In this document: positions 25,761-47,368 of the stretch, piece after piece
How the letters are laid out: the number at the start of each line of letters is the position of its first letter
Position numbering within the stretch: position 1 is the first letter of the stretch
Source of the DNA: Flavimarina sp. Hel_I_48
GTDB lineage: Bacteria > Bacteroidota > Bacteroidia > Flavobacteriales > Flavobacteriaceae
Assembly: GCF_000733945.1 (NCBI RefSeq)
Contig: NZ_JPOL01000002.1
Location: forward strand, 1,427,001 to 1,491,000
Direction of reading: 5' to 3'
DNA: 64,000 nucleotides
Position numbers and translations under genes: made by a program
The notes under the pieces: generated by a model
Seen by the model: the letters and a program-made list of their open reading frames with translations, nothing else
What the model was told of the DNA's origin: nothing
Database searches by the model: none

Positions 25761-25925
25761 TCATTGAACAACAGACGTTTTATAACTCAAAGCCAAAATA
25801 TAAGAACATTTAGGAATTAAATATCATACCGATTAGAGCGTCAATAAACAGGTTTAAATTCAATAATCTTCGTTATATTGCGATTGCCTTTATGATAAAG
25901 GTAATTATTTTATCGATTTGTAATC

Positions 25926-26627
25926 ATTAAGAGTCCAACTTCATCTACTGCCCTACTTGTATTCTCGCTTTCGGCGAAAGAAGAGGCATGCCGTAAAACG
26001 CTTAACAGTAGAAAAAATGCGAACGAAGTTGTTTTTGACGTTCTTATAAGCAAAACTGCTCAACTTGTTTCAGAAATTGGCCTGGACGTAGTCTGGATGG
26101 ACGAGAGCAAACAAAAGGGTCCTAATTTTTCATCTCGCATTACGTATGCCTTTAAACAGCTTTTTGAACAGGGTTATAAAAATGTTATTTCTATTGGCAA
26201 TGATACTCCTGGACTTGAGGTAGCGCATATAGAACGCGCAATAAAACATCTGGAAAAGGGCAAGGCGGTTATTGGCCCTTCCAGTGACGGGGGTGCTTAT
26301 CTAATAGGGCTTAACCGTTCTCAGTTTGAGACTTCTGATTTTAAAAATCTACCCTGGCAAAAAGAGGAATTATGTTCTCAGCTTTGCGCAAATATCTTTA
26401 CAAAAAATCACTCCCTGTTTTTTCTTGCTGAACTTAACGATCTTGATACTGCCGAAGACTTGTTTAACTTCGTCAACCAGAATCCCTATTCCCTTCTTGC
26501 CCTTATCAGCAGAGCGTATCCCGATCAAAATATTTCCCGTTTTGAGACTATAAAAGTTTTCTTTATAAAGCAAGCTTATTACGCTACAGGCCCTTTGCGG
26601 GCTCCGCCTCTACAAAGGGCTGCTTAG
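25926..26627 (+). CDS. DUF2064 glycosyltransferase-like protein (TIGR04282 group) without canonical start
   Basis: The frame is open from 25905 to the stop at 26625-26627. Conserved features lie in order: STALLVFSLSAKEEA (N-terminus of the family), IGNDTPGL (the nucleotide-sugar region, normally GxDxP), GPSSDGGAYLIGL, and DLDTAEDL near the C-terminus. The family is annotated as arsenosugar-biosynthesis glycosyltransferase. The homologous region clearly begins upstream of the only ATG (26097), yet no ATG, GTG or TTG exists in frame before it. An ATT at 25926 is the best placed non-standard start; otherwise the gene is damaged at its 5' end. The last 14 codons overlap an inverted repeat (26587-26622) and look added on. 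Confidence 0.6.
   Translation: MKSPTSSTALLVFSLSAKEEACRKTLNSRKNANEVVFDVLISKTAQLVSEIGLDVVWMDESKQKGPNFSSRITYAFKQLFEQGYKNVISIGNDTPGLEVAHIERAIKHLEKGKAVIGPSSDGGAYLIGLNRSQFETSDFKNLPWQKEELCSQLCANIFTKNHSLFFLAELNDLDTAEDLFNFVNQNPYSLLALISRAYPDQNISRFETIKVFFIKQAYYATGPLRAPPLQRAA
26587..26622. repeat. Inverted repeat overlapping a gene 3' end
   Basis: Arms of 11 and 10 bp (26587-26597, 26613-26622; one unpaired base) enclose an inner GCGG-GCT-CCGC stem. It covers the last codons of the DUF2064 gene and may act as terminator or be a REP-like insertion. Confidence 0.6.
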
Positions 26628-26724: not shown

Positions 26725-29700
26725 ATGAAAATAGTATTACTCGCCTGCTTGCAGTTATTTATTATAACTGCCATGGGTCAGGCCCAGACTTATACTACGC
26801 AAGTCGTTGACAATACTGGTTTACCGGTACCCTTTGCAACTGTAAACGAGGTAGGAACCCAAAACTTTACAACCACCGGTGAAAATGGGAACTTTACTTT
26901 GGAAACCGCGGCGAGCTCGTTTAAAATAAGGATTTCTTCCGTAGGTTTTGAAACGCTTACCCTAGCGGTAATCAATGAGAACCTACCGCAACAAATAAAA
27001 ATGAATATCTCTTCGGAAGAGCTGGATGCCGTAGTGGTAACCGCTTTGGGAATAGAACGTGAACGCCTGGCACTTGCTTCTTCGGTATCTATTGTGGGCG
27101 AAGAAGAACTTACTGAAGTTCCCATGACCAACCTGGTGAACAGCCTGGCCGGGCAAGTGGCGGGAGTTCAGATCACTAATGGATCTTCTGGTGTGGGTTC
27201 TTCGTCCCGCATTATTATTCGAGGTGAAAATTCGCTCAGCGGAACGAATCAACCGCTTTTTGTGGTGGATGGTGTGCCCATTAGCAATGATCAAATAACC
27301 AGTGACCTGGTAAACGATGGCGCCCTGCAGGAAGTGGATTACGGTAATGGCGGCGCAGATTTTAGTCCAGATGATATCGCTTCCATTTCTATTTTAAAAG
27401 GAGCAGGTTCTGCTGCGCTCTACGGTTCGCGTGCCGCAAATGGCGTCGTTTTGATCACGACCAAAAGAGGCCGGCGCCAGCCCGGTTTTGGCGTAAGTAC
27501 GAGCAGTACATTGACCATTGAAACGCTGCTTACCTTGCCTGATTATCAAAATAAATACGGTGGCGGCTCTAATGGTGAATATACTTTTCAAAATGGTATT
27601 GGTGCCGGGGTTAATGATGGCGGCATAAGCAGTTATGGCCCACGATTGGATCAGGGACAGCTGATCGCCCAGTTTGATAGTCCGTCAACAGATATCAATG
27701 GCAATCCGGTGCGGGGCGGTGATGTTATTGCGAGGACATTCCCTGATGGTTCTTTTACTGAAATTACCGCAACACCCTGGGTTTCCCGTCCTGATAATGT
27801 GCGTGATTTCTTTGATACCGGAGTTACCTATCAAAACAATGTGGCGATTTCTTCCGCAGGGGAAAATGGCAGCAGCCGACTATCATACACCAGCCTGCGC
27901 AATGAAGGTATTGTCCCCAATACTGATTTTGATCGTGACGGACTGGCTTTGAGCCTGGATCAGGACCTCAGCGACAACTTACGCGTTTCCACCTTTGTGA
28001 ACTATATCAATACGCGCAGCGGTAACCGCCCCAATCTGGGCTACGGCTATGAAAATGTTTTATACGGTTTTAACTGGACCGGGCGCCAGACCAATATCGC
28101 CTCTATGCGCGATTATTGGCAGGCAGGCCAGGAAGGAAGGCAGCATTTTGATGTTAATTACCTGTGGTTGACAAATCCCTACCTAACTTTATATGAAAAT
28201 ACGAATAGTTTTAATAAAAACAGGGTGCTGGGCAATGTTTCCGCTACTTATGATTTTTCTGAAAAGCTGAAATTAACCGTGCGCGGCGGACTCGATTTTT
28301 ACCAGGACAACCGCGCTTTTAAAAGGGCAAAGAGTACCAATAAAAATCCAGAGGGAAGTTATAGGGAGGATTACGTGAAATACCGCGAACTCAATAATGA
28401 CGTGCTGCTTACCTATAAAGATAAATTTAATGAGGATTTTGAGTATTCGGTTTCTGCCGGTGCAAACCGCTTTGATCAGGATATCAGTTATTCTTATGCG
28501 GAAGCAAGTCAGCTCGCACTGCCGGACATCTACACTTTAGCCAATTCTAGAACGCCGCTAAAGGGCAACAGTCAGATTTTTGACAAACGTATTAATAGCG
28601 TATACACGTTTGGGACTATCGCCTATAAAAATCAGGTGTACCTGGATGCGACTTTTCGCAACGATTGGAGCAGCACGCTTCCCGATGGCAGCAATTCCTT
28701 CGGATATTATTCGGCAGGATTGAGTTATGTGGCTTCTAATATGTTTGAGATGCCAGAAGCGATTTCGTTTTTAAAACTTCGACTGAGCGCGGCCAGCGTG
28801 GGCAATGATACAGATCCGTATCAAAATACTCAGAACTTTCAGTTCAATCAAAACTACGGTTCCAGCTTTCGGGTAACCAATGAAACGGTGCTTAAAAATG
28901 CCGATTTAAAACCAGAACGACTGGATGCTTACGAATTGGGTCTGGAAGCCTGGTTTCTCAAAGGAAGGATACAGCTGGATGCTTCCGCATATCAAAATAT
29001 AAGCAAGGATCAGATTATTTCCCGACCCATTTCTTCCAGCAGCGGATTTCAAAATTATAACGTAAATGGCGGCAAGGTGCGCACACGTGGACTGGAACTT
29101 ATGCTGAGTGGTGATATTTTAAAAGGAGGGGATTTTGGCTGGCAATCTTCCGTGAATTTCTCCACCTTCCGTAGTGTCGTGATCGAACTTCCAGAAGGTG
29201 TGGACCAGTTTGTAACCGGTTCAGCAAATATATTCAATGGCGGTTCCAATGCGGTTTTTTACATCGCCAGGGAAAATGGCCGCGTGGGCGATATGTACGG
29301 TACCGGGTTTGTAAAGATTGACGGGGAAACGCTTTATGCAAATGGTTTCCCGGTACAGGACAATACCTTGCGGAAACTGGGCAATTACAACCCTGATTTT
29401 AGTTTGGGATTCAACAATAACTTTAGCTATAAAAATATTGGATTGACGATTTTGTGGGACTGGCGCCAGGGCGGCACCATCGTTTCCAGGATCAAAGCGC
29501 TGGGAAGCACTTCCGGAGTGTTGAAAGAAACATTGGTAGGTCGTGAAAACCGTATTGTGGGCGACGGGGTCATGAATGCCGGTACAGCTGAAAATCCTAT
29601 GTATATCCCCAATGATCTTTCGGTAAGCGCGAGTTCTTATTATAATAATTTTTACGACCGTGGCAACGAGGAAAGTGCGGTGTATGATGCCTCGTACCTC

Positions 29701-29934
29701 AAATTGCGCCAGGTAAGCATTTATTACAATTTCCCTTCAGAATTGACCAATTCCATTGGTTTTTCGACCATAAAAGTGGGTATTGTAGGTAGTAATCTGC
29801 TGCTGTTTACTGAAAATCCGCATTTTGATCCGGAACTGAATGCTTTACAGGAACGCAATATCGTATATGGCGTAGAGGATTTCTCGTACCCATCCACACG
29901 CAATTTTGGCTTTAGCCTGAAAACCCAATTTTAA
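26725..29934 (+). CDS. SusC/RagA-family TonB-linked outer-membrane transporter (pair 2)
   Basis: A 1069-residue protein with signal peptide (MKIVLLACLQLFIITAMGQA), a carboxypeptidase-like domain (about 22-95), a TonB-box segment (ELDAVVVTALGIERER), plug domain (about 110-250, with PLFVVDGVPIS and AALYGSRAANGVVLITT) and a beta-barrel ending NFGFSLKTQF. It should import a ligand together with the SusD lipoprotein 10 bp downstream. The next genes on the same strand are a full ABC importer and salvage-type enzymes, so the ligand is probably a small molecule carried on into the cytoplasm rather than a polymer that is degraded outside. Confidence 0.95.
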   Translation: MKIVLLACLQLFIITAMGQAQTYTTQVVDNTGLPVPFATVNEVGTQNFTTTGENGNFTLETAASSFKIRISSVGFETLTLAVINENLPQQIKMNISSEELDAVVVTALGIERERLALASSVSIVGEEELTEVPMTNLVNSLAGQVAGVQITNGSSGVGSSSRIIIRGENSLSGTNQPLFVVDGVPISNDQITSDLVNDGALQEVDYGNGGADFSPDDIASISILKGAGSAALYGSRAANGVVLITTKRGRRQPGFGVSTSSTLTIETLLTLPDYQNKYGGGSNGEYTFQNGIGAGVNDGGISSYGPRLDQGQLIAQFDSPSTDINGNPVRGGDVIARTFPDGSFTEITATPWVSRPDNVRDFFDTGVTYQNNVAISSAGENGSSRLSYTSLRNEGIVPNTDFDRDGLALSLDQDLSDNLRVSTFVNYINTRSGNRPNLGYGYENVLYGFNWTGRQTNIASMRDYWQAGQEGRQHFDVNYLWLTNPYLTLYENTNSFNKNRVLGNVSATYDFSEKLKLTVRGGLDFYQDNRAFKRAKSTNKNPEGSYREDYVKYRELNNDVLLTYKDKFNEDFEYSVSAGANRFDQDISYSYAEASQLALPDIYTLANSRTPLKGNSQIFDKRINSVYTFGTIAYKNQVYLDATFRNDWSSTLPDGSNSFGYYSAGLSYVASNMFEMPEAISFLKLRLSAASVGNDTDPYQNTQNFQFNQNYGSSFRVTNETVLKNADLKPERLDAYELGLEAWFLKGRIQLDASAYQNISKDQIISRPISSSSGFQNYNVNGGKVRTRGLELMLSGDILKGGDFGWQSSVNFSTFRSVVIELPEGVDQFVTGSANIFNGGSNAVFYIARENGRVGDMYGTGFVKIDGETLYANGFPVQDNTLRKLGNYNPDFSLGFNNNFSYKNIGLTILWDWRQGGTIVSRIKALGSTSGVLKETLVGRENRIVGDGVMNAGTAENPMYIPNDLSVSASSYYNNFYDRGNEESAVYDASYLKLRQVSIYYNFPSELTNSIGFSTIKVGIVGSNLLLFTENPHFDPELNALQERNIVYGVEDFSYPSTRNFGFSLKTQF

Positions 29935-29944
29935 GAGCAAGAAA

Positions 29945-31396
29945 ATGAAAACTATATATCTATTTTTATTCGGTCTTTTGTGCCTTATGGGCGTGAGTTG
30001 TACGACTAATTTTGATGAACTCAATGAAAATCCCAATTCGCCACCCGAAGTAGACCCACAATATTTATTGACCAATGTGATCACTGTTGAGGCCAATGCA
30101 AATACTTATGATCAGGGTTTTTTACTGGCTGATTATCTTGCCCAGTTTTCGGCAAGTGTGGAGTTTGAACGTATTGATCGCTACGAGATGGGATCGAACA
30201 GCGCATATTGGGATCAGATTTTCCTATTGTTGACTGATCTCAAATCCATGGAAAACCTCGCAGGATACAACGAAGCTTATGGCGCGGTAGGCGATATATT
30301 AAAAAGTTTCCTGTTTTCCCAACTTACTGATATGTGGGGCGACGTTCCCTATACCGAAGCGCTGGAAGCAAAAGATGGAAAATTTACCCCTAAATATGAT
30401 AACCAGGAAAGTATTTATACCGCTCCCGAAACCGGGATACTTGCTGTTTTGCAACGCTCTGCAGTAACATTGCAAAACACAAATACCAGCATCGCCGGAG
30501 ATGTAATGTTCAATAACGATCTGGGAAAATGGACACGTTTCGCCAATTCCTTGCGCCTGCGCTATTTGCTGCGTATTTCCAACCGACTTACGGATTTTTC
30601 TGAAATGCAGGCGCTGGCAGATTCTGGCATGTTGATCGAATCTAACGAGCAAAATGCAGTTGTTCCCTACTTAAGCGCGGCGCCCAACCAGTTTCCATTT
30701 TTCACCGCAGCGCTGGGTGCGTATGGTGAACACAGAATGACAAAAACGGTAGATTCTGTTCTGAAATTATGGAACGATCCCCGCATCAGTATCCTTTACA
30801 AACCCACCCAATTGAGCGTCACCAATGGAAATCCACAATTTAAAGGCCTTTTGAACGGTCAGAACCGGGAAACTATCAGTGAAAAAGACGTCAATTTGAA
30901 CGATATTTCGCTGTTTGGGTCGATTTATCGTGATGTGCCAGATGGTGTAAATGGCCAATATATGCAATACGCCGAAGTGCAGTTTATCCTTGCGGAAGCC
31001 GCTGCCCGCGGGTATATTGCCGGAAACGCACAAACCTATTATCAAAATGCGATCGCGGGCAATTTCAATTATTATGGCACCAAAGTTCCTGACGGTTATT
31101 TTGAACAGGAAGCTGTAGCGCTTACCGGTAATCGGGATAATGATCTCGTTAAAATATTGACCCAAAAATGGCTCAGCCTCATCACCAATGGGCATGAAGC
31201 CTGGTTCAATATTCGCCGTACCGGGATTCCAGCTTTAAAACCGGGCCCAGACAATTTAAACGACGGCCGTTATCCCGCACGCTATTTATATCCTGAATCT
31301 GAACAAGCGACAAACAGCGCCAATTATCAGGAAGCGGTAAAGCGTATGGGCGGCGATGATATCAATAGTAAAGTATGGTGGGAAATCCTCCCCTAA
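29945..31396 (+). CDS. SusD/RagB-family lipoprotein (SusD_2 type, pair 2)
   Basis: A 483-residue lipoprotein (signal MKTIYLFLFGLLCLMG, lipobox GVSC) starting its mature part with TTNFDELNENPNSP, a hallmark of the SusD_2 subgroup. The middle part has the SusD TPR-like helices (WTRFANSLRLRYLLRI), and the C-terminal block is KWLSLITNGHEAWFNIRRTG. It is the surface binding protein for the SusC transporter 10 bp upstream. SusD_2 proteins are often linked to non-carbohydrate ligands, which fits the context, but the ligand is not known. Confidence 0.93.
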   Translation: MKTIYLFLFGLLCLMGVSCTTNFDELNENPNSPPEVDPQYLLTNVITVEANANTYDQGFLLADYLAQFSASVEFERIDRYEMGSNSAYWDQIFLLLTDLKSMENLAGYNEAYGAVGDILKSFLFSQLTDMWGDVPYTEALEAKDGKFTPKYDNQESIYTAPETGILAVLQRSAVTLQNTNTSIAGDVMFNNDLGKWTRFANSLRLRYLLRISNRLTDFSEMQALADSGMLIESNEQNAVVPYLSAAPNQFPFFTAALGAYGEHRMTKTVDSVLKLWNDPRISILYKPTQLSVTNGNPQFKGLLNGQNRETISEKDVNLNDISLFGSIYRDVPDGVNGQYMQYAEVQFILAEAAARGYIAGNAQTYYQNAIAGNFNYYGTKVPDGYFEQEAVALTGNRDNDLVKILTQKWLSLITNGHEAWFNIRRTGIPALKPGPDNLNDGRYPARYLYPESEQATNSANYQEAVKRMGGDDINSKVWWEILP

Positions 31397-31487
31397 CCCC
31401 TCCCAAGGAGGGGAAAATGTTGCTGGTTAATTATTAATAGAGTTCCTCCCCTTTTTTTCAAGGGGAGGTGCCGAAGGCGGAGGGGTT
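31395..31487. repeat. Palindromic intergenic repeat (composite of three stems)
   Basis: The ends AACCCCTCC (31395-31403) and GGAGGGGTT (31479-31487) are reverse complements; inside are the hairpins CCCCTCC-CAA-GGAGGGG (31397-31413) and CCTCCCCTT...AAGGGGAGG (31445-31468). It separates the SusD gene from the ABC transporter genes and could attenuate or protect the transcript. A related C-rich/G-rich element begins at 63975. Confidence 0.8.
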
Positions 31488-31522
31488 TTTACCTGAATAA
31501 CAAAAAGAATACAATAAATTAC

Positions 31523-32746
31523 ATGAAAAAATCAATTGAAATTTTCAGCATAATTGGAATACTGATGCTTCTTATAAGTTGTAATTCCGAGCCGAAAACT
31601 GACGATTCTGGCCTAAAAACGGCTTCCTGGGAGGATATTTCGGCGAAAGCGGAAGGAACTACCGTAAATATGATGATGTGGCAGGGCAGCCCGGTGATCA
31701 ATAATTATATGAACAATTATGTGGTGCCCCAAGTAAAAGAAAAATTTAATATTGACCTCCAAATAAGCGGTGGGCAGGGACCTGAAATCGTACAACTGGT
31801 CATGGGCGAGACAGAAGCAGGTATTGAAAACGGCCAAGTAGATATTGTGTGGATCAATGGGGAAACTTCTTTCCAACTGCGCAAAATAGACGGACTCTGG
31901 GGTCCTTTCATTGAGCAATTGCCGAATATTAAATTCATAAATCTGGAAGACCGCTACATCAACACAGATTTTCAGCAACCTATTGAAGGTATGGAAGCGC
32001 CGTGGAGCATTGGCCAGGCGGCAATGGTGTACGATTCGGCAAAAGTGGCAAGTCCGCCGCGCAATCTTGACCAGCTCGAAAGTTATGTGAAGCAATATCC
32101 CGGCACGTTTACGATAAGTAACGATTTTTCGGGCATGACCCAACTCAAAAGCTTCCTGGCAGAACTTGGCGGAAGTCCGAACAGCCTCAACGGCGCATTT
32201 TCCGAAGAAAAATACAAACGGCTTTCCACAAAATTGTGGGCGTATATCAACCGGAACAAAAAATATTTCTGGAAAGAAGGCGAAACGTTCCCAAAAGAAC
32301 AAACGAAAATGAGTCAATTGCTTGCCAACGGCGAACTGTATCTGGGTTTTGGCTTTAGCGAGGGCGGTATTGAAGAAAAAGTAGTCAGTGGTTTGTATCC
32401 CAAAACCGTACGTTCCTACGCCTGGGAAAACGGTACGATAAAAAACGCCAATTATATGGGTATTTTGAACAATGCGCCTAACAAAGCTGGTGCGATGGCG
32501 GTGATCAATTTCCTGATCTCGCCAGCAGCGCAGTTTGAAAAATCGCATGCCAATGGTATGGACTCCAATACCGTCCTTGACTTGGAGCGCCTGCCACAAG
32601 AATGGGCAACAAAATTCAAAAACGCACCGCAACGGCAGTATGGTCTGGAAATGGATGATTTAAAAGACTACGCGATTGAAGAACCCGCCCCGGAATATAT
32701 GATACGGCTGTATGAAGATTTTAGAACCCAGGTGATTGAAAAATAA
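31523..32746 (+). CDS. ABC transporter substrate-binding lipoprotein, YnjB-like
   Basis: A 407-residue lipoprotein (hydrophobic run ending LLISC, then NSEPKTDDSG). Motifs WQGSPVINNYMNNYV and DIVWINGE are those of the YnjB branch of ABC binding proteins (family near PotD/ThiB). The fold is a type II periplasmic binding protein. It is expected to be anchored in the outer leaflet of the inner membrane and to hand a small molecule to the permeases of the next two genes. Its stop codon overlaps the start of the first permease gene. E. coli YnjBCD has been proposed to carry thiamine, but this is not established, and nothing in the window (no TPP riboswitch or thi genes) supports thiamine here. Confidence 0.88.
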   Translation: MKKSIEIFSIIGILMLLISCNSEPKTDDSGLKTASWEDISAKAEGTTVNMMMWQGSPVINNYMNNYVVPQVKEKFNIDLQISGGQGPEIVQLVMGETEAGIENGQVDIVWINGETSFQLRKIDGLWGPFIEQLPNIKFINLEDRYINTDFQQPIEGMEAPWSIGQAAMVYDSAKVASPPRNLDQLESYVKQYPGTFTISNDFSGMTQLKSFLAELGGSPNSLNGAFSEEKYKRLSTKLWAYINRNKKYFWKEGETFPKEQTKMSQLLANGELYLGFGFSEGGIEEKVVSGLYPKTVRSYAWENGTIKNANYMGILNNAPNKAGAMAVINFLISPAAQFEKSHANGMDSNTVLDLERLPQEWATKFKNAPQRQYGLEMDDLKDYAIEEPAPEYMIRLYEDFRTQVIEK

Positions 32747-33590
32747 AGGCTCCATACTCGGCATTGTTTTTTTTGTGATCATTGGCGTGGTGCCTTTTTT
32801 TGCAGCGTTTCTGTACGCGCTGGGTTACAGTTTTGGCATACTGGGTATTCTGAATGATGGTTTTACCACCCGCTTTTGGGAACAGGTTTTTATATCTGGG
32901 GAATTCCTTAAATCCTTTGGTTATAGCGTGGCAATTGCATTGGTTTCGCTTGTGCTTTCCATAGGTGGCGCACTTTGGGTGACGCTGAAGTTCCGCAGGG
33001 AGCTGGACAGGAAATTCCTTTCTTTTATGCTGTATTTGCCACTCGCCATTCCTGGGGTCGTGGCTGGTTTTTTCATGATACAATTATTTTCAAAAGGCGG
33101 CTTTTTTGCACGGATCGCATTTCAGTTGGGCTGGATTGAAAAAACATCGCAGTTCCCTGATTTAGTGAACGATTCGCTTGCTTTTGGCATTATAATCACG
33201 TTTATCACCATGCTCGTCCCGTTTTTCACTTTGCTTTTTCTGAATGCGTATAAAAATGAACGCATTGAAGAACTTTCCATTCTTGCGCATGCGCTGGGCG
33301 CCAATGTCAATCAAGTAACACGGCGCGTGGTTTTGCCCATTATTTTGAAGAAAACGGGGGTGCTCATCGCACTCTATTTTATCTTTTTGCTCGGTGCTTA
33401 CGAGGTGCCGCTCATTTTGGGTCAGGAATCGCCGCAGATGCTTTCCGTTTTGATCATTAGGGAAACGCGCCAGTTTGACCTTAGCAAAATTTCAGAAGGT
33501 TACGTGGTCGCTGTAATTTACACGATCGTCGTCTCAATAACCGCCATTTTGTTGTTTTTACCAAAACGAAAAACAGTGTATGAAATCTAG
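32736..33590 (+). CDS. ABC transporter permease 1 (YnjC N-half-like)
   Basis: A 284-residue protein with six or so membrane helices and the ABC permease coupling helix ILAHALGANVNQVTRRVVLP (EAA-like loop, about residues 183-202). The frame begins with TTG at 32736, 11 bp inside the upstream gene; no ATG is available before the first helix (SILGIVFFVIIGVVPFF), so this start is likely. It overlaps the next permease gene by 11 bp. In E. coli YnjC the two halves are fused; here they are separate genes. Confidence 0.9.
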   Translation: MKNKGSILGIVFFVIIGVVPFFAAFLYALGYSFGILGILNDGFTTRFWEQVFISGEFLKSFGYSVAIALVSLVLSIGGALWVTLKFRRELDRKFLSFMLYLPLAIPGVVAGFFMIQLFSKGGFFARIAFQLGWIEKTSQFPDLVNDSLAFGIIITFITMLVPFFTLLFLNAYKNERIEELSILAHALGANVNQVTRRVVLPIILKKTGVLIALYFIFLLGAYEVPLILGQESPQMLSVLIIRETRQFDLSKISEGYVVAVIYTIVVSITAILLFLPKRKTVYEI

Positions 33591-34353
33591 CTGGAAACCT
33601 TATATATTAACGCTGATCGTACTGCTGATAACCTTCCCGTTCATCTTTATGGTGTTGCTGTCGCTTTCTTCAAGTTGGCGGTTTCCAGATGTGCTGCCCG
33701 GTTATTTTGGTTTTAAAAATTGGGTTACGGTCTTGAATTCTGAAGCGGGATTATTGCAGAGTTTTATCATTTCCGTAGTTATTTCGCTTGCCGTGGGAAT
33801 GGTTTCCACGATCAGTGGATTTCTGATCAGTAGAGCGGTATTTTACCATAAAAACAAGCGGATTTTGACCCTTTTTGCCTATTTTCCATATGTTTTGGCT
33901 CCGGTGGTTTTCGGCGCATGCCTTAGTTTTTTCTTTCTGAAAATTGGTTTGTTTGGGAATGTGACCGGTGTGATCGTGGCGCAGTTTCTGGTCGCTTTTC
34001 CGTACGCGCTGATCTTTTTTGGCAGCTTCTGGAACAAAAAAATAAAAAGCTATGAAGATCTGGTCGCCACTTTGGGAGGTACTTCACGGCAAACCTTTTT
34101 TAAGGTCTTGCTTCCACTCGCTAAAAGCATGCTCCTCATCTGTTTTTTTCAGACCTTTTTGATCTCCTGGTTCGAGTACGGCCTTACCTCAATTATTGGC
34201 GTGGGCAAAGTGCAGACGCTCACCATAAAAGTATTTCTATTTATTAAAGAAGCCAATTATTATTACGGCGCGCTGAGTTGCTGCCTGCTTATTTTTCCAC
34301 CCGTGGTGCTGTTGTATTTCAACAAGCGCTACGTATTTAAAAATCTTGTTTGA
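33580..34353 (+). CDS. ABC transporter permease 2 (YnjC C-half-like)
   Basis: A 257-residue protein with six predicted membrane helices and the coupling loop DLVATLGGTSRQTFFKVLLP (about residues 167-186). It pairs with permease 1 to form the membrane channel. The gene overlaps its neighbours on both sides (11 bp and 4 bp), which shows tight translational coupling of the whole importer. Confidence 0.9.
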   Translation: MKSSWKPYILTLIVLLITFPFIFMVLLSLSSSWRFPDVLPGYFGFKNWVTVLNSEAGLLQSFIISVVISLAVGMVSTISGFLISRAVFYHKNKRILTLFAYFPYVLAPVVFGACLSFFFLKIGLFGNVTGVIVAQFLVAFPYALIFFGSFWNKKIKSYEDLVATLGGTSRQTFFKVLLPLAKSMLLICFFQTFLISWFEYGLTSIIGVGKVQTLTIKVFLFIKEANYYYGALSCCLLIFPPVVLLYFNKRYVFKNLV

Positions 34354-35075
34354 TGTTTCTTGAAGTCCAGCATATCACAAAAAGTTTTAATTACGAGCAT
34401 GTAGTCAAGGATCTCAATTTTACCCTTGATGCGCATAAAACGCTGAGTATTCTAGGCAAATCTGGGTGTGGAAAAACCACGATGCTAAAAATAATCGCCG
34501 GACTCATAAAACCTGATTCTGGCACACTTTTGCTTAAAGGGGAAGACGTTACAAACGCGCGTCCAGAAAAAAGAAATATCGTGTATTTATATCAGGAAGA
34601 TTTACTGTTTCCGCATTTAAATGCCTTTGAAAATATTGCCTTTGGCCTTCGGCTGAAAAAAATTCCAGAACCCCAAATCAATGAAAAAGTTGATCATATG
34701 ATCGCGAGTCTAGAATTACATGGTCAGGCCAGTAAGATGCCCACGCAGCTTTCGGGGGGACAGCGGCAACGGGTGTCTTTTGGCAGGGCCATAATAACAA
34801 ATCCGTCGTTGCTTTTGCTCGACGAACCCTTTGGCAGCCTTGATGCCGGCACACGCCAGCGCATGCAGCAACTCTTTAAGAAATTGACCCAGGAGTTTAA
34901 AATCACTTCGCTTTTTGTGACCCACGATCTTAAGGAAGCGGTACTCATGGGAGATGAGATCGGTTTTATGCGCGCCGGAAATTTACAGGTCTATAAAGAC
35001 AAAAAGGATTTTATAAACGATCCCGAAACTGGCGTGCAGGAGGAAATGAAGTATTGGAAGAGTTTGGGAGGATAA
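34350..35075 (+). CDS. ABC transporter ATP-binding protein (YnjD-like)
   Basis: A 241-residue ATPase with Walker A GKSGCGKTT (about residues 36-44), Q-loop region, signature LSGGQRQR, Walker B LLLLDEPFGSLD and the switch histidine in VTHD. It overlaps permease 2 by 4 bp (ATGA). It energises import by the upstream permeases. It has no C-terminal TOBE-type regulatory domain. The stop codon is followed directly by the end of a MITE-like repeat (35077). Confidence 0.95.
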   Translation: MMFLEVQHITKSFNYEHVVKDLNFTLDAHKTLSILGKSGCGKTTMLKIIAGLIKPDSGTLLLKGEDVTNARPEKRNIVYLYQEDLLFPHLNAFENIAFGLRLKKIPEPQINEKVDHMIASLELHGQASKMPTQLSGGQRQRVSFGRAIITNPSLLLLDEPFGSLDAGTRQRMQQLFKKLTQEFKITSLFVTHDLKEAVLMGDEIGFMRAGNLQVYKDKKDFINDPETGVQEEMKYWKSLGG

Positions 35076-35076
35076 A

Positions 35077-35277
35077 TGACGTAGGACCTAAGACTTTTTG
35101 ACTCAAGACTAAAAATTAACCCTGGTACGTCATGCTAAATTTAATTCAGCATCACACTAGTTACGCTTAGGATGAGACCCTGAACCTAATTCAGGGTGAC
35201 GCGTCTGGGAATTGAAAAAAGCTGAGAGAATACGGTAATGTGGCATTAAAGATAAAATTGTCTTATGTCCTACGTCA
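35077..35277. repeat. MITE-like element with 18-bp terminal inverted repeats
   Basis: The 18-bp sequence TGACGTAGGACCTAAGAC (35077-35094) recurs inverted at 35260-35277 with one mismatch. The 201-bp element has no ORF of its own. It holds a second nested palindrome (35129-35201). It begins 2 bp after the ATPase stop codon and ends in front of the nucleoside hydrolase. This shape is that of a small non-autonomous mobile or REP-type element. Confidence 0.75.
35129..35201. repeat. Nested two-stem palindromic (REP-like) repeat, copy 1
   Basis: CGTCA (35129-35133) pairs with TGACG (35197-35201); in between are an ATGCT...AGCAT stem and a perfect CCCTGAA-CCTAA-TTCAGGG hairpin (35178-35196). A related element lies at 36921-36990. 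Confidence 0.7.
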
Positions 35278-35315
35278 AACTATCTTATATCTCTTTAATT
35301 ATAATTGAAATGATT

Positions 35316-36230
35316 ATGACAAAAAAACAAGTTTGGATAGATACTGACCTCGCTGCGGGGATGAAAAGAGTCAACGCCGAAGGCTTTAGCGATGTGGATG
35401 ACGCGTATGCGATCCTCCAATTAATGAAAGCTGAAAATGTTGAAATAGTGGGAATGAGCGCTGTTTTTGGCAATACGCCATTAGAAAACGCATTCCCCCT
35501 TTGCCAAAAAATGAACACGGAATTTGCCGGGGGAAAAATCCCCGTTCATAGTGGCGCAGCGGAAGCGCTCAACCTACACGAGATAAAAACCAATGACGCC
35601 GTGGAAGCGCTCGCGAGCGCCCTTAAAAAGCAAAAAATGATTGTTCTGGCCATTGGCCCGGCAACGAATATTGCACTTTTACTTTTACGTTATCCCGAGC
35701 TTAAAACCCAGATTGAAGAAGTTGTTCTGGTTGCCGGTCGTCGCAAGGAAACCGATCATTTCGCCATTGGTAACCAGGGCAGGCGTGCGCAGGACCTTAA
35801 TTTTGATCTGGATAACGATGCATTTCGGGTACTCTTTGAAAGCGGGGTTAAGGTAGTTCTTTGTCCGTTTGAGATCTCGAATAAAGTCTGGTTAAAAAAG
35901 GCAGATCTTGACCAACTCGCGCAAGGCGACGCAGGCAACAAATGGCTTGCCGAAGTATCGCAAAACTGGCTTGCGCAATGGATACATCTGGGCGCAGACG
36001 GTTTTAATCCTTTTGATGTGCTAGCCAGTCACTATATCAGCGCCCCAGAAGATTTGGTTATGGAAGAATTGAATGCCCATCTTGAAATTTATCCCGATGA
36101 CACCGTCCCGGAAAACGACCGAAAAGCATATAAAAACTACCTTTTATGTGATAAAAATGCCGGTTTTCCGGTGATGTATTGTTATGATGTGGTTGCGGAT
36201 TATCATGAAAGATTAATGGCGAGTTTTTGA
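35316..36230 (+). CDS. Divergent nucleoside hydrolase (IunH-like)
   Basis: About 304 residues from the ATG at 35316 (MTKKQVWIDTDLAAG). An ATG at 35265 lies inside the terminal repeat of the MITE-like element and is rejected. The family's metal site DxDxGxDD is split: D9-T-D11 is followed by about 14 residues before DVDDA (D26-D29). Also present are SAVFGNTPLENA and AIGPATNIALLL, the normal family motifs. The usual HDP motif near the C-terminus appears as FNPFD. Family enzymes cleave the N-glycosidic bond of nucleosides to base and ribose. The changes at the metal and catalytic positions suggest an unusual substrate or weak activity. It lies in the import/salvage locus. Confidence 0.85.
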   Translation: MTKKQVWIDTDLAAGMKRVNAEGFSDVDDAYAILQLMKAENVEIVGMSAVFGNTPLENAFPLCQKMNTEFAGGKIPVHSGAAEALNLHEIKTNDAVEALASALKKQKMIVLAIGPATNIALLLLRYPELKTQIEEVVLVAGRRKETDHFAIGNQGRRAQDLNFDLDNDAFRVLFESGVKVVLCPFEISNKVWLKKADLDQLAQGDAGNKWLAEVSQNWLAQWIHLGADGFNPFDVLASHYISAPEDLVMEELNAHLEIYPDDTVPENDRKAYKNYLLCDKNAGFPVMYCYDVVADYHERLMASF

Positions 36231-36304
36231 GATTTAAAGACCATTTTCGGGCCAAAAAATACTGATTTTAAGCTGAAATTGACGAATTTTAGGAAAAGTA
36301 GAAT

Positions 36305-36538
36305 ATGAAAACACTAGCCAACATAAAAAATCAATTGATTGATAAAATTTTATTGACAGATAATGCCGATTTACTTTCTGCGATCGATTCTATTTTTAAC
36401 GCTACTCAAACAAGTGATTCTTTAAAATTAGATTCTTATCAATTGGAAATGCTGATGATGAGCGAAAAAGATATCGAAAATGGCAATTTGATCTCAGAGG
36501 CTGACCTAGAAAAAGAAGATGCTAAATGGATGGATTAG
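36305..36538 (+). CDS. Antitoxin of a type II toxin-antitoxin pair
   Basis: A 77-residue acidic protein (MKTLANIKNQLIDKI...EADLEKEDAKWMD). The size, acidic C-terminus and 13-bp overlap with a RelE/ParE-like gene are those of type II antitoxins of Bacteroidota. It would neutralise the toxin by direct binding; an N-terminal DNA-binding domain is not evident. Confidence 0.75.
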   Translation: MKTLANIKNQLIDKILLTDNADLLSAIDSIFNATQTSDSLKLDSYQLEMLMMSEKDIENGNLISEADLEKEDAKWMD

Positions 36539-36837
36539 CTCTTTTTTGGACGGCAACTGCTAAAAAACAGCGCAATTATGTTTTTGATTATTGGAATAAC
36601 CGAAATAAAAGTAAAAATTATTCTCGAAAACTAAACCTTTCCATAAGAGAGCGAACCAAATTATTGAAAAAAAATCCGGAAATGGGCAAGAAAATCGATT
36701 ATGCAGAAATGCGCTCAATTTCAATGGGTCATTATTCAATAATCTACAAAATAGCTGCCGAAGCGATAATAATTATAGCTTTTTGGGACAATAGGCAAAA
36801 TCCCAAGAAACTACTCAACTTTTTGAAAAATAATTGA
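36526..36837 (+). CDS. RelE/ParE-family toxin
   Basis: A 103-residue basic protein with the RelE/ParE pattern: LFWTATAKKQRNYVFDYWNNRN at the N-terminus in which a helix pair is expected, RSISMGHYSIIYKI in the middle and IIIIAFWDNRQNPKKL at the end. It overlaps the antitoxin gene by 13 bp in another frame. Such toxins are mRNA interferases or gyrase inhibitors; which one cannot be told. The pair is inserted between genes of the import/salvage locus and is probably unrelated to its chemistry. Confidence 0.82.
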   Translation: MDGLALFWTATAKKQRNYVFDYWNNRNKSKNYSRKLNLSIRERTKLLKKNPEMGKKIDYAEMRSISMGHYSIIYKIAAEAIIIIAFWDNRQNPKKLLNFLKNN

Positions 36838-36920
36838 ACATGCATGTTCATAAATTTGGAAAATAACACTTCAATCCTAAAATATGGTCGGTTCTCGTTT
36901 GATAAAATTCATCCATGAGC

Positions 36921-36990
36921 CGTGAATTTATTTCAGTGTCGCATAAGAGAAATAACATGAGCGTGATGCTGAACTAAATTCAGCAGGACG
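36921..36990. repeat. Two-stem palindromic (REP-like) repeat, copy 2
   Basis: Contains a perfect TGCTGAA-CTAAA-TTCAGCA hairpin (36967-36985) preceded by a degenerate first half (CGTGAATTTATTTCAG). It is related to the repeat at 35129-35201 and lies just before the kinase gene. Confidence 0.6.
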
Positions 36991-37004
36991 CAACAAAGAT
37001 TAAA

Positions 37005-37991
37005 ATGCAAAAACTCACCACAAACACACCCCAACTCGAAGCCTACCTTAAAAGTCAAGGTTGGTTACAAGCGCAAGAATATATCGCCACCATCGAAAAA
37101 CCGGGCGAGGGCAACATGAACTTTACGTTGCGCGTGGATACCGGTGAACGCACCTTTATCATTAAACAAAGCCGCGGTTATGTAGAGAAATATCCTCAGG
37201 TAGAAGCACCCGAAAAAAGGGCGCTTATGGAGGCCGAATTTTACGCATTGACTTCAAAAAACACGCACTTGAAAGGGATGATGCCCAATTTAATCGCGGT
37301 TGACACAACCAATAATGTGCTCCAACTGGAAGATCTGGGCAGCGGTAAAGATTACAGTTTTCTGTACCAAAAGGGAAAAACCATAGCTGAAGACGAACTT
37401 TTTCAGCTTATGGATTACGTGGCGCAACTGCATAACATAACGGCAGGAGCTGTAGAAAACCCCATTTCAAATCCCGATATGCGCGCGCTCAACCACGAGC
37501 ATATTTTTGTTTATCCCTATATGGAAAACAATGGTCTTGACCTGGATGCGATCCTACCAGGACTTGCCTCTGTGGGCGCTACGTTTAAAAAAGACACGGA
37601 ACTTCAGCGTAAATTAAAAACACTTGGCGAACTCTATTTGGCTGATGGGGATCATTTATTACACGGTGATTATTTTCCCGGAAGTTGGTTGAAAACCACT
37701 CAAGGTATCAAAATCATCGATCCCGAATTCTGCTTTTTTGGTCCGCCGGAATTTGAAATTGGGATCACTATTGCACATCTTAAAATGGCAGATCAGCCTG
37801 AAAAACTGGTGAAAAGTGCCCTAAAACAGTATAAAAAACAGGCAAAACTGGACGAAAATCTGAAAAAACAGTTCACCGCTGCCGAAATTTTACGCCGTAT
37901 TTTAGGACTGGCGCAGCTTCCGCTGGAAATTGATTTGGCAAAGCGAAAAGAACTGGTTGAAGAAGCGAGAAATGTAATTCTTAACACATGA
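37005..37991 (+). CDS. APH-family kinase resembling methylthioribose kinase
   Basis: A 328-residue protein of the protein-kinase-like fold. It has GEGNMNFTLRV (residues 34-44, glycine-rich loop), FIIKQSRGYV with the ATP-binding Lys54, the brace EAEFY, a catalytic loop LLHGDYFPGSWL (H220-G-D222) and the metal motif IIDPEFCFFGPPEFEIG (237-253). The form HGDxxxGS and DPEFxFxGPxxFxIG are typical of 5-methylthioribose kinase (MtnK) rather than of aminoglycoside or choline kinases. I infer phosphorylation of a ribose-like sugar, possibly released by the neighbouring nucleoside hydrolase. MtnA-like or other methionine-salvage genes are absent from the window, so it may not be true MtnK. Confidence 0.8.
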   Translation: MQKLTTNTPQLEAYLKSQGWLQAQEYIATIEKPGEGNMNFTLRVDTGERTFIIKQSRGYVEKYPQVEAPEKRALMEAEFYALTSKNTHLKGMMPNLIAVDTTNNVLQLEDLGSGKDYSFLYQKGKTIAEDELFQLMDYVAQLHNITAGAVENPISNPDMRALNHEHIFVYPYMENNGLDLDAILPGLASVGATFKKDTELQRKLKTLGELYLADGDHLLHGDYFPGSWLKTTQGIKIIDPEFCFFGPPEFEIGITIAHLKMADQPEKLVKSALKQYKKQAKLDENLKKQFTAAEILRRILGLAQLPLEIDLAKRKELVEEARNVILNT

Positions 37992-38015
37992 TTTTAATTT
38001 GAAACAGATTCAAAA

Positions 38016-38111
38016 AAGAGAAGAGAGAAGAGAGAAGAGAGAAGAGAGAAAAGAGAAGAGAACAAAGAAAGTTCCATGAATCTTTATTCTCTGTTCTATT
38101 TTCTTTGTTCT
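38016..38111. repeat. Polypurine heptad tandem repeat and linked inverted repeat
   Basis: From about 38016 to 38058 the heptamer AGAGAAG is repeated about six times with small changes. Directly after it AGAACAAAGAAA (38059-38070) is the exact reverse complement of 38100-38111. The pair forms a hairpin with a loop of about 29 bases and ends 13 bp before the radical SAM start. It can change length by slippage and may affect expression of that gene. Confidence 0.8.
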
Positions 38112-38124
38112 AAAAATAAATGTT

Positions 38125-39096
38125 ATGAAAAGCAATTTTGAAGAGTATTACTGTATTTACTGGGTGTTTACGCAACTTTGCAACGATCACTGCGACCATT
38201 GTTACAACAACAGCGGGCCGCAGGGAACGCGCATTTCCGAAAAGGACTGTATGGCAATCATCGGTAATTTGCCCAGTGGTTTAAAGCAGATCATTTTAAG
38301 CGGCGGCGAACCGCTGGCTGACAAGAAATTGTTGTACGCGATTCTGGATAAACTGGCTCAAAAGTATAAAAACAAACTTTTTGTCACGCTTCAGTTTAAT
38401 GGCGATTTACTCAATCCCGAAGTGCTGCAAACATTGATTGAAAAGGGGGTTGATCGTTTTTCTATCGCAAGTATAGATCGCTATCATAAAAAGCAAGGTG
38501 CGCGCAAAGAAGAACTGTCAGGTTTATTTGAAAGCAAAGGGATCGAATTTGTGGAAGGCCAACCTAAGATCACTACCGAAGCCAAGGAAAAGGATATACT
38601 TTCCAGACCACTTTCCTACGGATTTTTTGGCGCTACCGAAGATATGTGGCTGGGCGGAAACTGGGCCCGTGGCCGTGCGCTTGAAAAAGATATTTGGTTA
38701 AAAGATGGCACGCACAACTTTTGTGCGATCCATTCTGGCGCGCGTGGGTTTCTGGGGCATGAAGATGCTAACGTAATGCAGGAACTTTCTATCCAGTTAT
38801 GGAAGATCAATCCCTGCTGCCCAGGCACAAAAGTGCCTATGGGCGACGCCCGCAAAGAAAGGGTTTCTGAAGTTCTGGAACGTATGTCGAAACACGAAGT
38901 GATGCAAAAACTCAATAAAGGTGACATTTATGGCGTGGGAGAAAGCATCGGTATTTCAGCAAAAGAAGGACTGCAACGTGCCATCGAGACCGGTAATGTA
39001 TGCCTGTGGTGCGATGCGTTTTTCGGAAAATATTACGACATGAAAAAACAGGAACCTAAAACAGCGAAAGTCTATACGCAAAAACTGGATATCTAA
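38125..39096 (+). CDS. Radical SAM enzyme of unknown function
   Basis: A 323-residue protein with the radical SAM cluster motif CNDHCDHC (CxxxCxxC; Cys19, Cys23, Cys26) and the GGEP motif in IILSGGEPLADK. The barrel spans about residues 10-180. The C-terminal third contains further cysteines: NFCAIHSG, NPCCPGTK and VCLWCDAFFG (CxxC), which could hold an auxiliary iron-sulfur cluster. It belongs to no family I can name with confidence. It is the last plus-strand gene of the import/salvage locus, so it may modify the imported compound or a part of it. Transfer from gene context to function is inference. Confidence 0.85.
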   Translation: MKSNFEEYYCIYWVFTQLCNDHCDHCYNNSGPQGTRISEKDCMAIIGNLPSGLKQIILSGGEPLADKKLLYAILDKLAQKYKNKLFVTLQFNGDLLNPEVLQTLIEKGVDRFSIASIDRYHKKQGARKEELSGLFESKGIEFVEGQPKITTEAKEKDILSRPLSYGFFGATEDMWLGGNWARGRALEKDIWLKDGTHNFCAIHSGARGFLGHEDANVMQELSIQLWKINPCCPGTKVPMGDARKERVSEVLERMSKHEVMQKLNKGDIYGVGESIGISAKEGLQRAIETGNVCLWCDAFFGKYYDMKKQEPKTAKVYTQKLDI

Positions 39097-42775: not shown

Positions 42776-43920
42776 ACTTTTATATAAATTTTATTTTTAT
42801 CAAGTATATACCCCAGCAGCCACATCAACAGCACATAGCTTACCGCAAAGGCCAGGGAAGCGTTATATGGAGTCAGCCAACTTAAAAAAAGATTTTCATA
42901 AACCAGTCCACTAAGTGATTGCCCTCCAATTTGCAGTAACCCCATAAGTGTGATCACCACACCAGACATTATGTAGATAAACAAAGGGTTTCTCCCAAAT
43001 GCTTCAAAAAAATAAGTCCAGCTTTTTTGCTTCGCAATTTCCAGAATGTAGATAAGGGCAGCCAGGATTACCAAATCCCAACCCGTACTGAAAAGAACAT
43101 AGGAGCTGGTCCAAATGGGCTTGTTGATGGGGAAGAAAATATCCCATAATAGGGCAGTTATTAACAAAAAAACACCTGAAATCGCAAGATTTATGATCGT
43201 TTTTCGGGTATTTCCCCACTTCTGAATAAAAATTCCCGCTGCGTAACCGGCGATCACATTTACCACTGCGGGAAGCGTACTCAAAATTCCTTCAGGATCA
43301 AAAGCAATCCCGTAACCCTGGTAAAGATTTTCTGAGGGAAATAAAAAAAAGTCCAGTTTTAACGCTGCGTTATTCTCTAAACTATAAGGTGCGGGATGAT
43401 CTCCAAAAAACCAGAGCAGCGCCCAGTAGCCCAGCAGTATAAGTACACTAACGCTCATTGCTTTTTTTAAACTCAAATAATGCAACAGCAAAGAAGCAAT
43501 ACCATAACAAAGTGCGATGCGCTGCAAAACACCCATAATACGCATAATACGGACTTCCGTAAAATCTATAAAATGAAGGCCATCATGGGCACGGTAAATA
43601 AATGGAAACGCATTGAGCAAAAAACCAATAAGAAATATTAGTCCTGTACGCTTAAAAACCTTGCTTAAAAATGCACTATTTGAACGGTTTTTATACTTTT
43701 TAAGACTAAAACTCGCTGCGTTTCCTATCACAAATAAGAAAGTAGGAAAGACCAGATCTGTAAGGGTAAAGCCATGCCAGGCCGAATGTTCAAAAGGGGC
43801 GTAAATGCTTGCCCAACTTCCGGGGGTGTTTACCAGAATCATAAGCGCAATAGTCATCCCGCGTAGTACATCGAGCGCAAAATAGCGTTGTACTACAGGT
43901 GGTTGATCATGTACATTCAT
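42772..43920 (-). CDS. NagX-like membrane protein (DUF5009, heparan-alpha-glucosaminide N-acetyltransferase family)
   Basis: A 382-residue protein with about ten membrane helices. The N-terminus is diagnostic: FALDVLRGMTIALMILVNTPG followed by HGFTLTDLVFPTFLFVIG. Relatives include the lysosomal HGSNAT enzyme and bacterial NagX. It probably acts on terminal amino sugars or helps carry them over the inner membrane. It is co-transcribed with the GH3/beta-lactamase gene downstream (4-bp overlap), consistent with handling of sugars released from peptidoglycan or chitin. Confidence 0.9.
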   Translation of the reverse strand: MNVHDQPPVVQRYFALDVLRGMTIALMILVNTPGSWASIYAPFEHSAWHGFTLTDLVFPTFLFVIGNAASFSLKKYKNRSNSAFLSKVFKRTGLIFLIGFLLNAFPFIYRAHDGLHFIDFTEVRIMRIMGVLQRIALCYGIASLLLHYLSLKKAMSVSVLILLGYWALLWFFGDHPAPYSLENNAALKLDFFLFPSENLYQGYGIAFDPEGILSTLPAVVNVIAGYAAGIFIQKWGNTRKTIINLAISGVFLLITALLWDIFFPINKPIWTSSYVLFSTGWDLVILAALIYILEIAKQKSWTYFFEAFGRNPLFIYIMSGVVITLMGLLQIGGQSLSGLVYENLFLSWLTPYNASLAFAVSYVLLMWLLGYILDKNKIYIKV

Positions 43921-43974
43921 TTGATCGTGTTTAATTAAATAAATTCTGACTTTTATATCTAGACTTCCTAAAGG

Positions 43975-44019
43975 TATAAATTTTATATAAATAAATAATC
44001 TTTTATAAAAATTTATAAA
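43975..44019. promoter_or_regulatory. Operator-like AT palindromes between nagX-like and ROK genes
   Basis: TATAAATTTTATA (43975-43987) and two TTTATAAA octamers (44002-44009 and 44012-44019), all self-complementary or nearly so, in the 198-bp divergent region. The spacing (10 bp for the last two) would put them on one face of the helix. They are candidates for the ROK regulator encoded next to them. Confidence 0.35.
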
Positions 44020-44118
44020 AAGTATTTTTGTTCTACCTTTTTTTATTTACATTTATTTTTCGATCAATATCTTATCAGGAGAACAATCGAAAATATTTTG
44101 ATTTTTAGAAAAATCACC

Positions 44119-45390: not shown

Positions 45391-45419
45391 ACGATCAGAA
45401 TACATCTTAACCTACTATT

Positions 45420-47357: not shown

Positions 47358-47368
47358 TTTAAGCATTG

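What the first reader, a model, noticed from the sequence alone, without database searches (positions are those of the whole stretch)
26725..39096. Possible envelope-to-cytoplasm import and salvage locus for a nucleoside-like compound
SusC, SusD_2, YnjB-like binding protein, two permeases, ATPase, divergent nucleoside hydrolase, methylthioribose-kinase-like enzyme and a radical SAM enzyme follow one another on one strand. Together they would take a ligand through the outer membrane, across the inner membrane, split it at an N-glycosidic bond, phosphorylate the sugar and carry out radical chemistry. The gene content is seen directly; the common pathway and substrate are inference. It resembles, in logic but not in recognised genes, queuosine-type salvage (nucleoside hydrolase plus radical SAM) and methylthioadenosine salvage (nucleosidase plus MtnK). 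I know of no described system with exactly this set.
Basis: partly seen in the sequence, partly recalled or inferred. Interest (0 to 1): 0.8.

Follow-up and report, generated by a model that had tools for sequence, protein, structure and literature searches.

The report
Riboside uptake operon, possibly for arsenosugars
A flavobacterium carries a row of genes that probably imports a nucleoside-like sugar compound, cuts off its base and phosphorylates the sugar, and the company these genes keep in related bacteria suggests the compound may be an arsenic-containing sugar.

Summary
In detail: SusC, SusD-like_2, YnjB, two permeases, ATPase, a PF01156 nucleoside hydrolase (NH), a methylthioribose-kinase-like kinase (KIN) and a radical SAM protein lie on one strand. 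Corrections: a DUF2064 gene upstream belongs to the unit; a ParE-type toxin gene interrupts it; the radical SAM gene is optional. In the 13 loci of the window's KIN clade DUF2064, SusC, SusD and KIN are constant and NH is in 12 of 12 testable; YnjB (10 of 12) and radical SAM (9 of 13) come and go. A same-genus genome has the operon without radical SAM, joined to rhodanese-TIGR04282-PNP. An N-ribosyl hydrolase lies near KIN in 33 of 41 loci (controls 0 of 40), an 'arsenosugar' marker in 17 of 41 (controls 0 of 40). The window genome has TIGR04282, TIGR04283 and PNP but no ArsS. Best reading: riboside import, hydrolysis, sugar phosphorylation, perhaps feeding an arsenosugar-type pathway by salvage. 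No ligand was tested; ArsS presence does not track these genes consistently, and none of 16 fetched ArsS neighbourhoods holds YnjB, NH, KIN or this radical SAM gene.

The parts
25905..26627 (+). DUF2064 gene (short TIGR04282-like form), first gene of the unit; ATG ORF is 26097-26627, homology runs further upstream in the open frame but without ATG/GTG/TTG there
   Evidence: PF09837 75.5 bits; TIGR04282 100.8 bits, below cut-off 134; a DUF2064 gene lies in 13 of 13 loci of the KIN clade; lacks the K.KTRLA loop of the full form
26725..29934 (+). SusC-type TonB-linked outer-membrane transporter
   Evidence: TIGR04056 587.4 bits, cut-off 368
29945..31396 (+). SusD-like lipoprotein
   Evidence: PF12771 290.3 bits
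31523..32746 (+). YnjB-family substrate-binding protein
   Evidence: NF008633 350.5 bits, cut-off 203; AlphaFold model pLDDT 90.6
32736..33590 (+). ABC permease 1
   Evidence: PF00528 40.5 bits
33580..34353 (+). ABC permease 2
   Evidence: PF00528 35.3 bits
34350..35075 (+). ABC ATPase
   Evidence: PF00005 124.3 bits
35265..36230 (+). nucleoside hydrolase NH (probable start 35316)
   Evidence: PF01156 117.1 bits; DTD...DVDD and a later Asp conserved in A5
36305..36538 (+). small ORF before parE, putative antitoxin (inferred from position only)
   Evidence: sequence read; not scanned
36526..36837 (+). ParE-type toxin gene between NH and KIN
   Evidence: PF05016 43.8 bits; NH-KIN midpoints are 1750 bases apart here and 945-994 in L011-L014, L016-L018, L133 and L173-L175
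37005..37991 (+). kinase KIN, relative of methylthioribose kinase
   Evidence: TIGR01767 115.4 bits, below cut-off 275; motifs conserved in 8 of 8; profile matches 2pyw and 2olc
38125..39096 (+). radical SAM protein, Twitch/SPASM-like, optional member
   Evidence: PF04055 55.3 bits; model best matched by EpeE and BtrN

Best explanation
The operon imports a ribosylated, nucleoside-like compound (SusCD through the outer membrane, YnjBCD through the inner). NH cleaves its N-glycosidic bond. KIN phosphorylates the freed sugar, probably a 5-substituted ribose, on the C1 hydroxyl as methylthioribose kinase does. That yields the same kind of product, a ribose-1-phosphate derivative, that a nucleoside phosphorylase makes in one step. 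The product most likely enters the gene set that NCBI calls arsenosugar biosynthesis (rhodanese NF045521, TIGR04282, PNP, DUF547, TIGR04283), so the operon would be a salvage entry for an arsenosugar-like riboside in a cell that lacks ArsS. Shown: gene content, family membership, conserved motifs, conserved gene order, neighbourhoods. Inferred: direction of transport, order of the two reactions, C1 phosphorylation, the 5-substituent, and arsenic. The radical SAM gene is an accessory from a wider YnjBCD-radical SAM module; its reaction is unknown.
For: The KIN clade of 13 loci (99* SH-aLRT) keeps DUF2064, SusC, SusD and KIN (13 of 13) and NH (12 of 12 testable) together through rearrangements. 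33 of 41 sampled KIN loci have an N-ribosyl hydrolase within 3.5 kb, of three kinds (PF01156 window type, another PF01156, PF03747); 0 of 40 control stretches have one. KIN carries the motifs HGD..GS, DPEF and E..RR..G.A in 8 of 8, aligned with methylthioribose-kinase structures. In same-genus G008 one strand reads rhodanese-TIGR04282-PNP-DUF2064 fragment-SusC-SusD-YnjB-perm-perm-ATPase-NH-KIN; in the window's genome rhodanese-TIGR04282-PNP lie at the syntenic site without the rest, and DUF547-TIGR04283 elsewhere. ArsS, ArsM, PNP or TIGR04283 within about 10 kb: 17 of 41 KIN loci against 0 of 40 controls. The YnjBCD-radical SAM module lies near such genes in 8 of 71 loci.
Against: No ligand or reaction was tested. 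None of 16 ArsS neighbourhoods fetched on their own (11 from genomes with the radical SAM module, 5 from the phylum sample) shows YnjB, NH, KIN or this radical SAM gene. Genome-level co-occurrence with ArsS is inconsistent: 19 of 37 KIN genomes against 195 of 262 others in the family (p 0.006, negative), 19 of 40 against 76 of 251 in the order of Algoriphagus lacus (p 0.045, positive), 23 of 50 radical SAM genomes against 120 of 296 (p 0.54). Neighbourhood counts are not independent: 12 of the 17 loci share one arrangement. ArsS itself is near KIN in only 2 of 41. The PNP is of the inosine/guanosine type. KIN misses the MTRK cut-off.
Confidence: 0.5

Rival explanations
1. Ordinary nucleoside (or methylthioadenosine/5'-deoxyadenosine) scavenging for base and carbon, with no arsenic: NH releases the base, KIN traps the ribose or 5-deoxyribose as the 1-phosphate.
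For: NH/KIN chemistry is enough; 24 of 41 KIN loci show no arsenosugar marker within about 10 kb; the window genome lacks ArsS; partners of KIN include ADP-ribosylglycohydrolase and nucleoside hydrolase genes whose N-termini look like signal peptides to my eye.
Against: Does not explain the repeated, control-tested neighbourhood with PNP, TIGR04283, TIGR04282, rhodanese and ArsM, nor the constant DUF2064 partner.
Confidence: 0.3
2. Queuosine-type salvage: NH frees a modified base, the radical SAM enzyme reworks it, the sugar is waste that KIN recycles.
For: QueK is a queuosine-related nucleoside hydrolase and QueL regenerates preQ1 (PMC11130926, passages seen; that QueK shares PF01156 and that QueL is a radical SAM enzyme is recalled).
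Against: The operon exists without radical SAM, and of 71 radical SAM loci outside the clade none has one of the three N-ribosyl hydrolases. Queuosine genes were not searched for by model, so this is not a full test.
Confidence: 0.05
3. NH and KIN recycle the 5'-deoxyadenosine that the radical SAM enzyme makes, while SusCD-YnjBCD import that enzyme's substrate.
For: MTR kinase relatives can act on 5-deoxyribose (recalled); the genes are adjacent here.
Against: Four clade members show NH-KIN without the radical SAM gene; 71 radical SAM loci lack KIN and the N-ribosyl hydrolases.
Confidence: 0.05
4. YnjBCD and SusCD carry a metal chelate, polyamine or other small ligand, and NH/KIN are unrelated passengers.
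For: The YnjB model resembles binding proteins for iron, sugar phosphates, polyamines, oligosaccharides and dinucleotides, so the fold does not fix the ligand.
Against: SusCD-NH-KIN stay together even where YnjBCD is absent (L174, L175); no locus of 81 has both SusC and the other TonB receptor.
Confidence: 0.1

Closest known systems
Methylthioadenosine salvage (MtnN nucleosidase plus MtnK kinase)
   Same: N-glycosidic hydrolysis followed by a kinase of the same family with the same motifs
   Different: NH is PF01156, not MtnN; KIN misses the MTRK cut-off; envelope importer genes attached; other methionine-salvage genes were not searched for
ArsM-ArsS arsenosugar pathway (Synechocystis; NCBIfam TIGR04167, NF038099, TIGR04282, TIGR04283)
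   Same: TIGR04282, TIGR04283, rhodanese and PNP are in the window genome, and TIGR04282, rhodanese and PNP are contiguous with the operon in G008
   Different: No ArsS in the window genome; import and hydrolysis genes instead of de novo synthesis
E. coli ynjBCD
   Same: YnjB subfamily NF008633; E. coli records match the window YnjB at 31% identity
   Different: ligand unknown; the E. coli neighbours YnjA, YnjE and YnjF are recalled; SusCD, NH and KIN are additional here
QueK-QueL queuine salvage
   Same: nucleoside hydrolase, with a radical SAM gene beside it here
   Different: kinase and SusCD present; radical SAM dispensable

Membership tests
PF01156 nucleoside hydrolase | Pfam gathering score and DTD...DD metal site with late Asp | tested here: met
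   117.1 vs 34.2 bits; D9, D11, D28, D29, N162, D234 invariant in the 8 rows of A5; the role of these residues is recalled
S-methyl-5-thioribose kinase (TIGR01767) | score over curated cut-off 275 | tested here: not met
   115.4 bits
S-methyl-5-thioribose kinase (TIGR01767) | HGD..GS, DPEF and C-terminal RR..G.A motifs | tested here: met
   invariant in 8 of 8 and aligned with Arabidopsis 2pyw (the C-terminal part only weakly, i-Evalue 82); 2olc matched, its alignment not shown
YnjB subfamily NF008633 | score over cut-off 203 | tested here: met
   350.5 bits
SusCD pair | TIGR04056 SusC next to SusD-like protein | tested here: met
   587.4 and 290.3 bits
Arsenosugar biosynthesis | ArsS (TIGR04167) in the genome | tested here: not met
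   best 40.5 bits against cut-off 300
Arsenosugar biosynthesis | TIGR04282 and TIGR04283 in the genome | tested here: met
   210.8 vs 134 and 220.9 vs 182 bits
Arsenosugar biosynthesis | ArsM (NF038099) in the window genome | not tested
Known radical SAM families of NCBIfam | score over a curated cut-off | tested here: not met
   best TIGR04055 47.7 vs 500 bits; none of the 25 shown of 34 matches reaches its cut-off
Radical SAM superfamily | CX3CX2C motif | tested here: met
   C19, C23, C26 invariant in 48 aligned rows; the truncated L007/L010 copy not included
Queuosine salvage | queuosine genes beside the hydrolase | not tested
   no model search was made for them

The most novel reading that the evidence does not exclude
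This is the first dedicated uptake and salvage system for arsenosugars or arsenonucleosides: SusCD-YnjBCD import the riboside, NH frees 5-dimethylarsinoyl-5-deoxyribose, and KIN, a methylthioribose-kinase relative, makes its 1-phosphate for TIGR04282/TIGR04283 to build new arsenosugars in bacteria that lack ArsS.
Probability: 0.28. Interest if true: 0.85.

Novelty: new variant of a known kind. Interest (0 to 1): 0.6.

Why it matters
Arsenosugars are a main form of organic arsenic in algae (recalled). How bacteria take them up and take them apart, and what the glycosyltransferase-like genes after ArsS do, is open as far as my searches show. This locus offers named genes (NH, KIN, YnjB, SusD, DUF2064) that can be expressed and assayed. 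It also shows that a methylthioribose-kinase-like family is common in Bacteroidota (37 of 299 genomes of the window's family, its own included, and 40 of 291 of another order) and in the loci read usually has an N-ribosyl hydrolase gene nearby (33 of 41).

Tried and rejected

Literature: searches listed no paper on this gene set in the open-licence library; subscription papers are mostly not held, so this is not proof of absence. Seen as passages only: PMC12159101, PMC11130926, PMC12934955, PMC8787705 (a reference-list passage), PMC8552651, PMC8801600. The primary ArsS papers were not seen; their content is taken from those passages or recalled.

Limits: KIN neighbourhoods were read for 40 of the 78 places (the window and L017 are two more of the 78) plus L133, chosen mostly by score. 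The ArsS test used 50 of the 80 loci. The 40 controls are stretches at round-number positions that I picked on KIN-bearing contigs of 18 of these genomes, not a random draw. Presence in a stretch was judged by tblastn score limits I set, against single reference proteins. Trees are quick searches with SH-aLRT only. The short DUF2064 form and full TIGR04282 cross-match, so TIGR04282 was left out of the strict marker count: counting it gives 18 of 41, L174 being added only by its DUF2064 gene. For the same reason I do not use the tree count of 10 changes for the looser 'ars' label.
Full report
What is there. The window lies in a 4.14-Mb flavobacterial genome. YnjB, permease and ATPase genes overlap end to end. 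NH and KIN are parted by 774 bases that hold a ParE-type toxin gene (PF05016) and a small ORF before it. In L008 NH, KIN and the radical SAM gene overlap by 4 bases. A DUF2064 gene stands directly upstream of SusC.

Relatives of the radical SAM protein. A scan of the genome-contig collection with alignment A1 gave 137 candidates, of which the best 80 loci were kept. With the window that makes 81 loci. SusC and SusD are in 9, KIN in 9 and NH in 8 (the contig of L015 begins inside KIN). A different TonB receptor is in 60, and no locus has both receptors. In the radical SAM tree the SusCD/KIN loci plus L010, whose contig ends inside the gene, form one clade of 10 (SH-aLRT 100) against 71 others. 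Of those 71, 63 have YnjB within the stretch and none has one of the three N-ribosyl hydrolases. The radical SAM gene therefore belongs to a wider module of TonB receptor, YnjBCD, radical SAM and often DUF2064, and the hydrolase-kinase pair with SusCD is a branch of it. It is rare: 6 of 296 genomes of the phylum sample, the window's own included.

The kinase shows what is constant. KIN matched 3 of 13 genomes of the genus, 37 of 299 of the family and 40 of 291 of the order around Algoriphagus lacus. I read 40 neighbourhoods from these plus L133. In a KIN tree the SusCD type forms a clade of 13 rows (99*): the window, L011-L018, L133, L173, L174 and L175. All 13 have DUF2064, SusC, SusD and KIN (DUF2064), and 12 of the 12 testable have NH. 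YnjB is in 10 of 12 and the radical SAM gene in 9 of 13. L133 (genome G008, same genus, no radical SAM hit) has the operon complete except for the radical SAM gene. L174 and L175 have SusCD-NH-KIN with neither YnjB nor radical SAM in the stretch.

Hydrolase pairing. In 33 of the 41 KIN loci an N-ribosyl hydrolase gene lies within 3.5 kb of KIN. Three kinds occur: the window type, a second PF01156 type, and PF03747 ADP-ribosylglycohydrolase. Of 40 control stretches of 20 kb, placed by me at round-number positions on KIN-bearing contigs, none holds any of these. Unlike hydrolases beside one kinase family argue that the kinase acts on the sugar that such hydrolysis frees. KIN is nearest to methylthioribose kinase: TIGR01767 115 bits, profile matches to 2pyw and to methylthioribose kinase 2olc (that they are the Arabidopsis and B. 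subtilis enzymes is recalled), and HGD..GS, DPEF and RR..G.A conserved in 8 of 8. Methylthioribose kinase phosphorylates the C1 hydroxyl of a 5-substituted ribose (established knowledge, recalled). NH keeps the DTD...DVDD metal site.

The arsenosugar neighbourhood. Strict markers (ArsS, ArsM, PNP or TIGR04283) lie within about 10 kb of KIN in 17 of 41 loci and in 0 of 40 controls. Twelve of the 17 share one arrangement, KIN-hydrolase followed by rhodanese-TIGR04282-PNP with some inserted genes, so they are not independent. The others are L175, L193, L195, L196 and L207. In the radical SAM set 8 of 71 loci have such markers: four Flavobacteriaceae (L074, L082, L086, L089) with PNP and TIGR04283, three of these with ArsS and two with ArsM; then L029 and L054 with ArsS, L048 and L063 with PNP. 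The clearest case is G008. One strand there reads rhodanese (NF045521), TIGR04282, PNP, DUF2064 fragment, SusC, SusD, YnjB, permease, permease, ATPase, NH, KIN, next to an Era-like GTPase gene (named by eye). In the window's genome the syntenic site (six genes in order) holds only PNP-TIGR04282-rhodanese beyond that GTPase gene, and DUF547-TIGR04283 lie elsewhere. The salvage part is thus absent or moved at that site, and the window carries a copy with the radical SAM gene. The window's genome has no ArsS; ArsM was not tested.

Against this reading. Of 16 ArsS neighbourhoods fetched on their own (11 from genomes with the radical SAM module, 5 from the phylum sample), none shows YnjB, NH, KIN or this radical SAM gene. 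Presence of ArsS does not track the genes in a consistent way: 23 of 50 radical SAM genomes against 120 of 296 (p 0.54), 19 of 37 KIN genomes against 195 of 262 in the family (p 0.006, fewer than expected), 19 of 40 against 76 of 251 in the other order (p 0.045, more than expected). The deficit in the family would fit salvage replacing synthesis, but I saw it after the fact. ArsS itself is beside KIN in only 2 of 41 loci. That ArsS acts with ArsM in arsenosugar synthesis is reported in PMC8552651 (passage), and adenosylation of arsenic by a radical SAM enzyme in PMC12159101 (passage). The names of TIGR04282 and TIGR04283 rest on NCBI's models.

Verdict. Gene content and order are confirmed. 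Riboside import followed by hydrolysis and sugar phosphorylation is the best reading. The link to an arsenosugar-type pathway is a control-tested neighbourhood signal with results against it, not a demonstrated function. The radical SAM step should be taken out of the core model.

Noticed in passing
window 36305-36837: A ParE-type toxin gene with a small ORF before it sits inside the operon between NH and KIN; in the other clade members NH and KIN lie close together.
   Followed up: partly
window 25905-26627; L221 7299-7619; L222 5211-5660: The DUF2064 gene lacks an ordinary start codon upstream in the window frame and its ORF is short in G008 and G007, so it may be decaying in this genus.
   Followed up: partly
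L020 6399-7728; c7 and c8 each in 26 of 81 radical SAM loci: A pair of about 220-aa proteins accompanies YnjBCD-radical SAM, many of them in Hymenobacter; the L020 pair has no Pfam or NCBIfam match.
   Followed up: partly
L012 15663-16040 and 12 other radical SAM loci: A 125-aa protein with a CxxC motif (c9; the L012 copy has no family match) often follows SusD or the radical SAM gene.
   Followed up: partly
L102 6020-6895: In Peptoclostridium acidaminophilum a nucleoside hydrolase lies directly before YnjB, 27% identical to the window NH.
   Followed up: yes
L098-L106, L108, L109: In 8 of 11 annotated plasmid stretches outside Bacteroidota YnjBCD lies with a CDP-alcohol phosphatidyltransferase gene; TVP38/TMEM64, FAD oxidoreductase and rhodanese genes also recur.
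   Followed up: partly
L048 1065-1325 and L033 10902-11162: A PQ-loop/SemiSWEET-like gene (L048 copy scanned) follows the radical SAM gene; PNP follows it in L048.
   Followed up: partly
window 39812-48331: Next to the operon lies what looks like a cell-wall-sugar set: a glycosidase/serine-hydrolase-like ORF (by eye), ROK protein, glucosamine isomerase-PIG-L fusion and N-acetylmuramoyl amidase.
   Followed up: no
L007 18989-19892: In the HyVt-349 contig the radical SAM gene runs into a short inverted copy of itself at the contig end, probably an assembly artefact.
   Followed up: no
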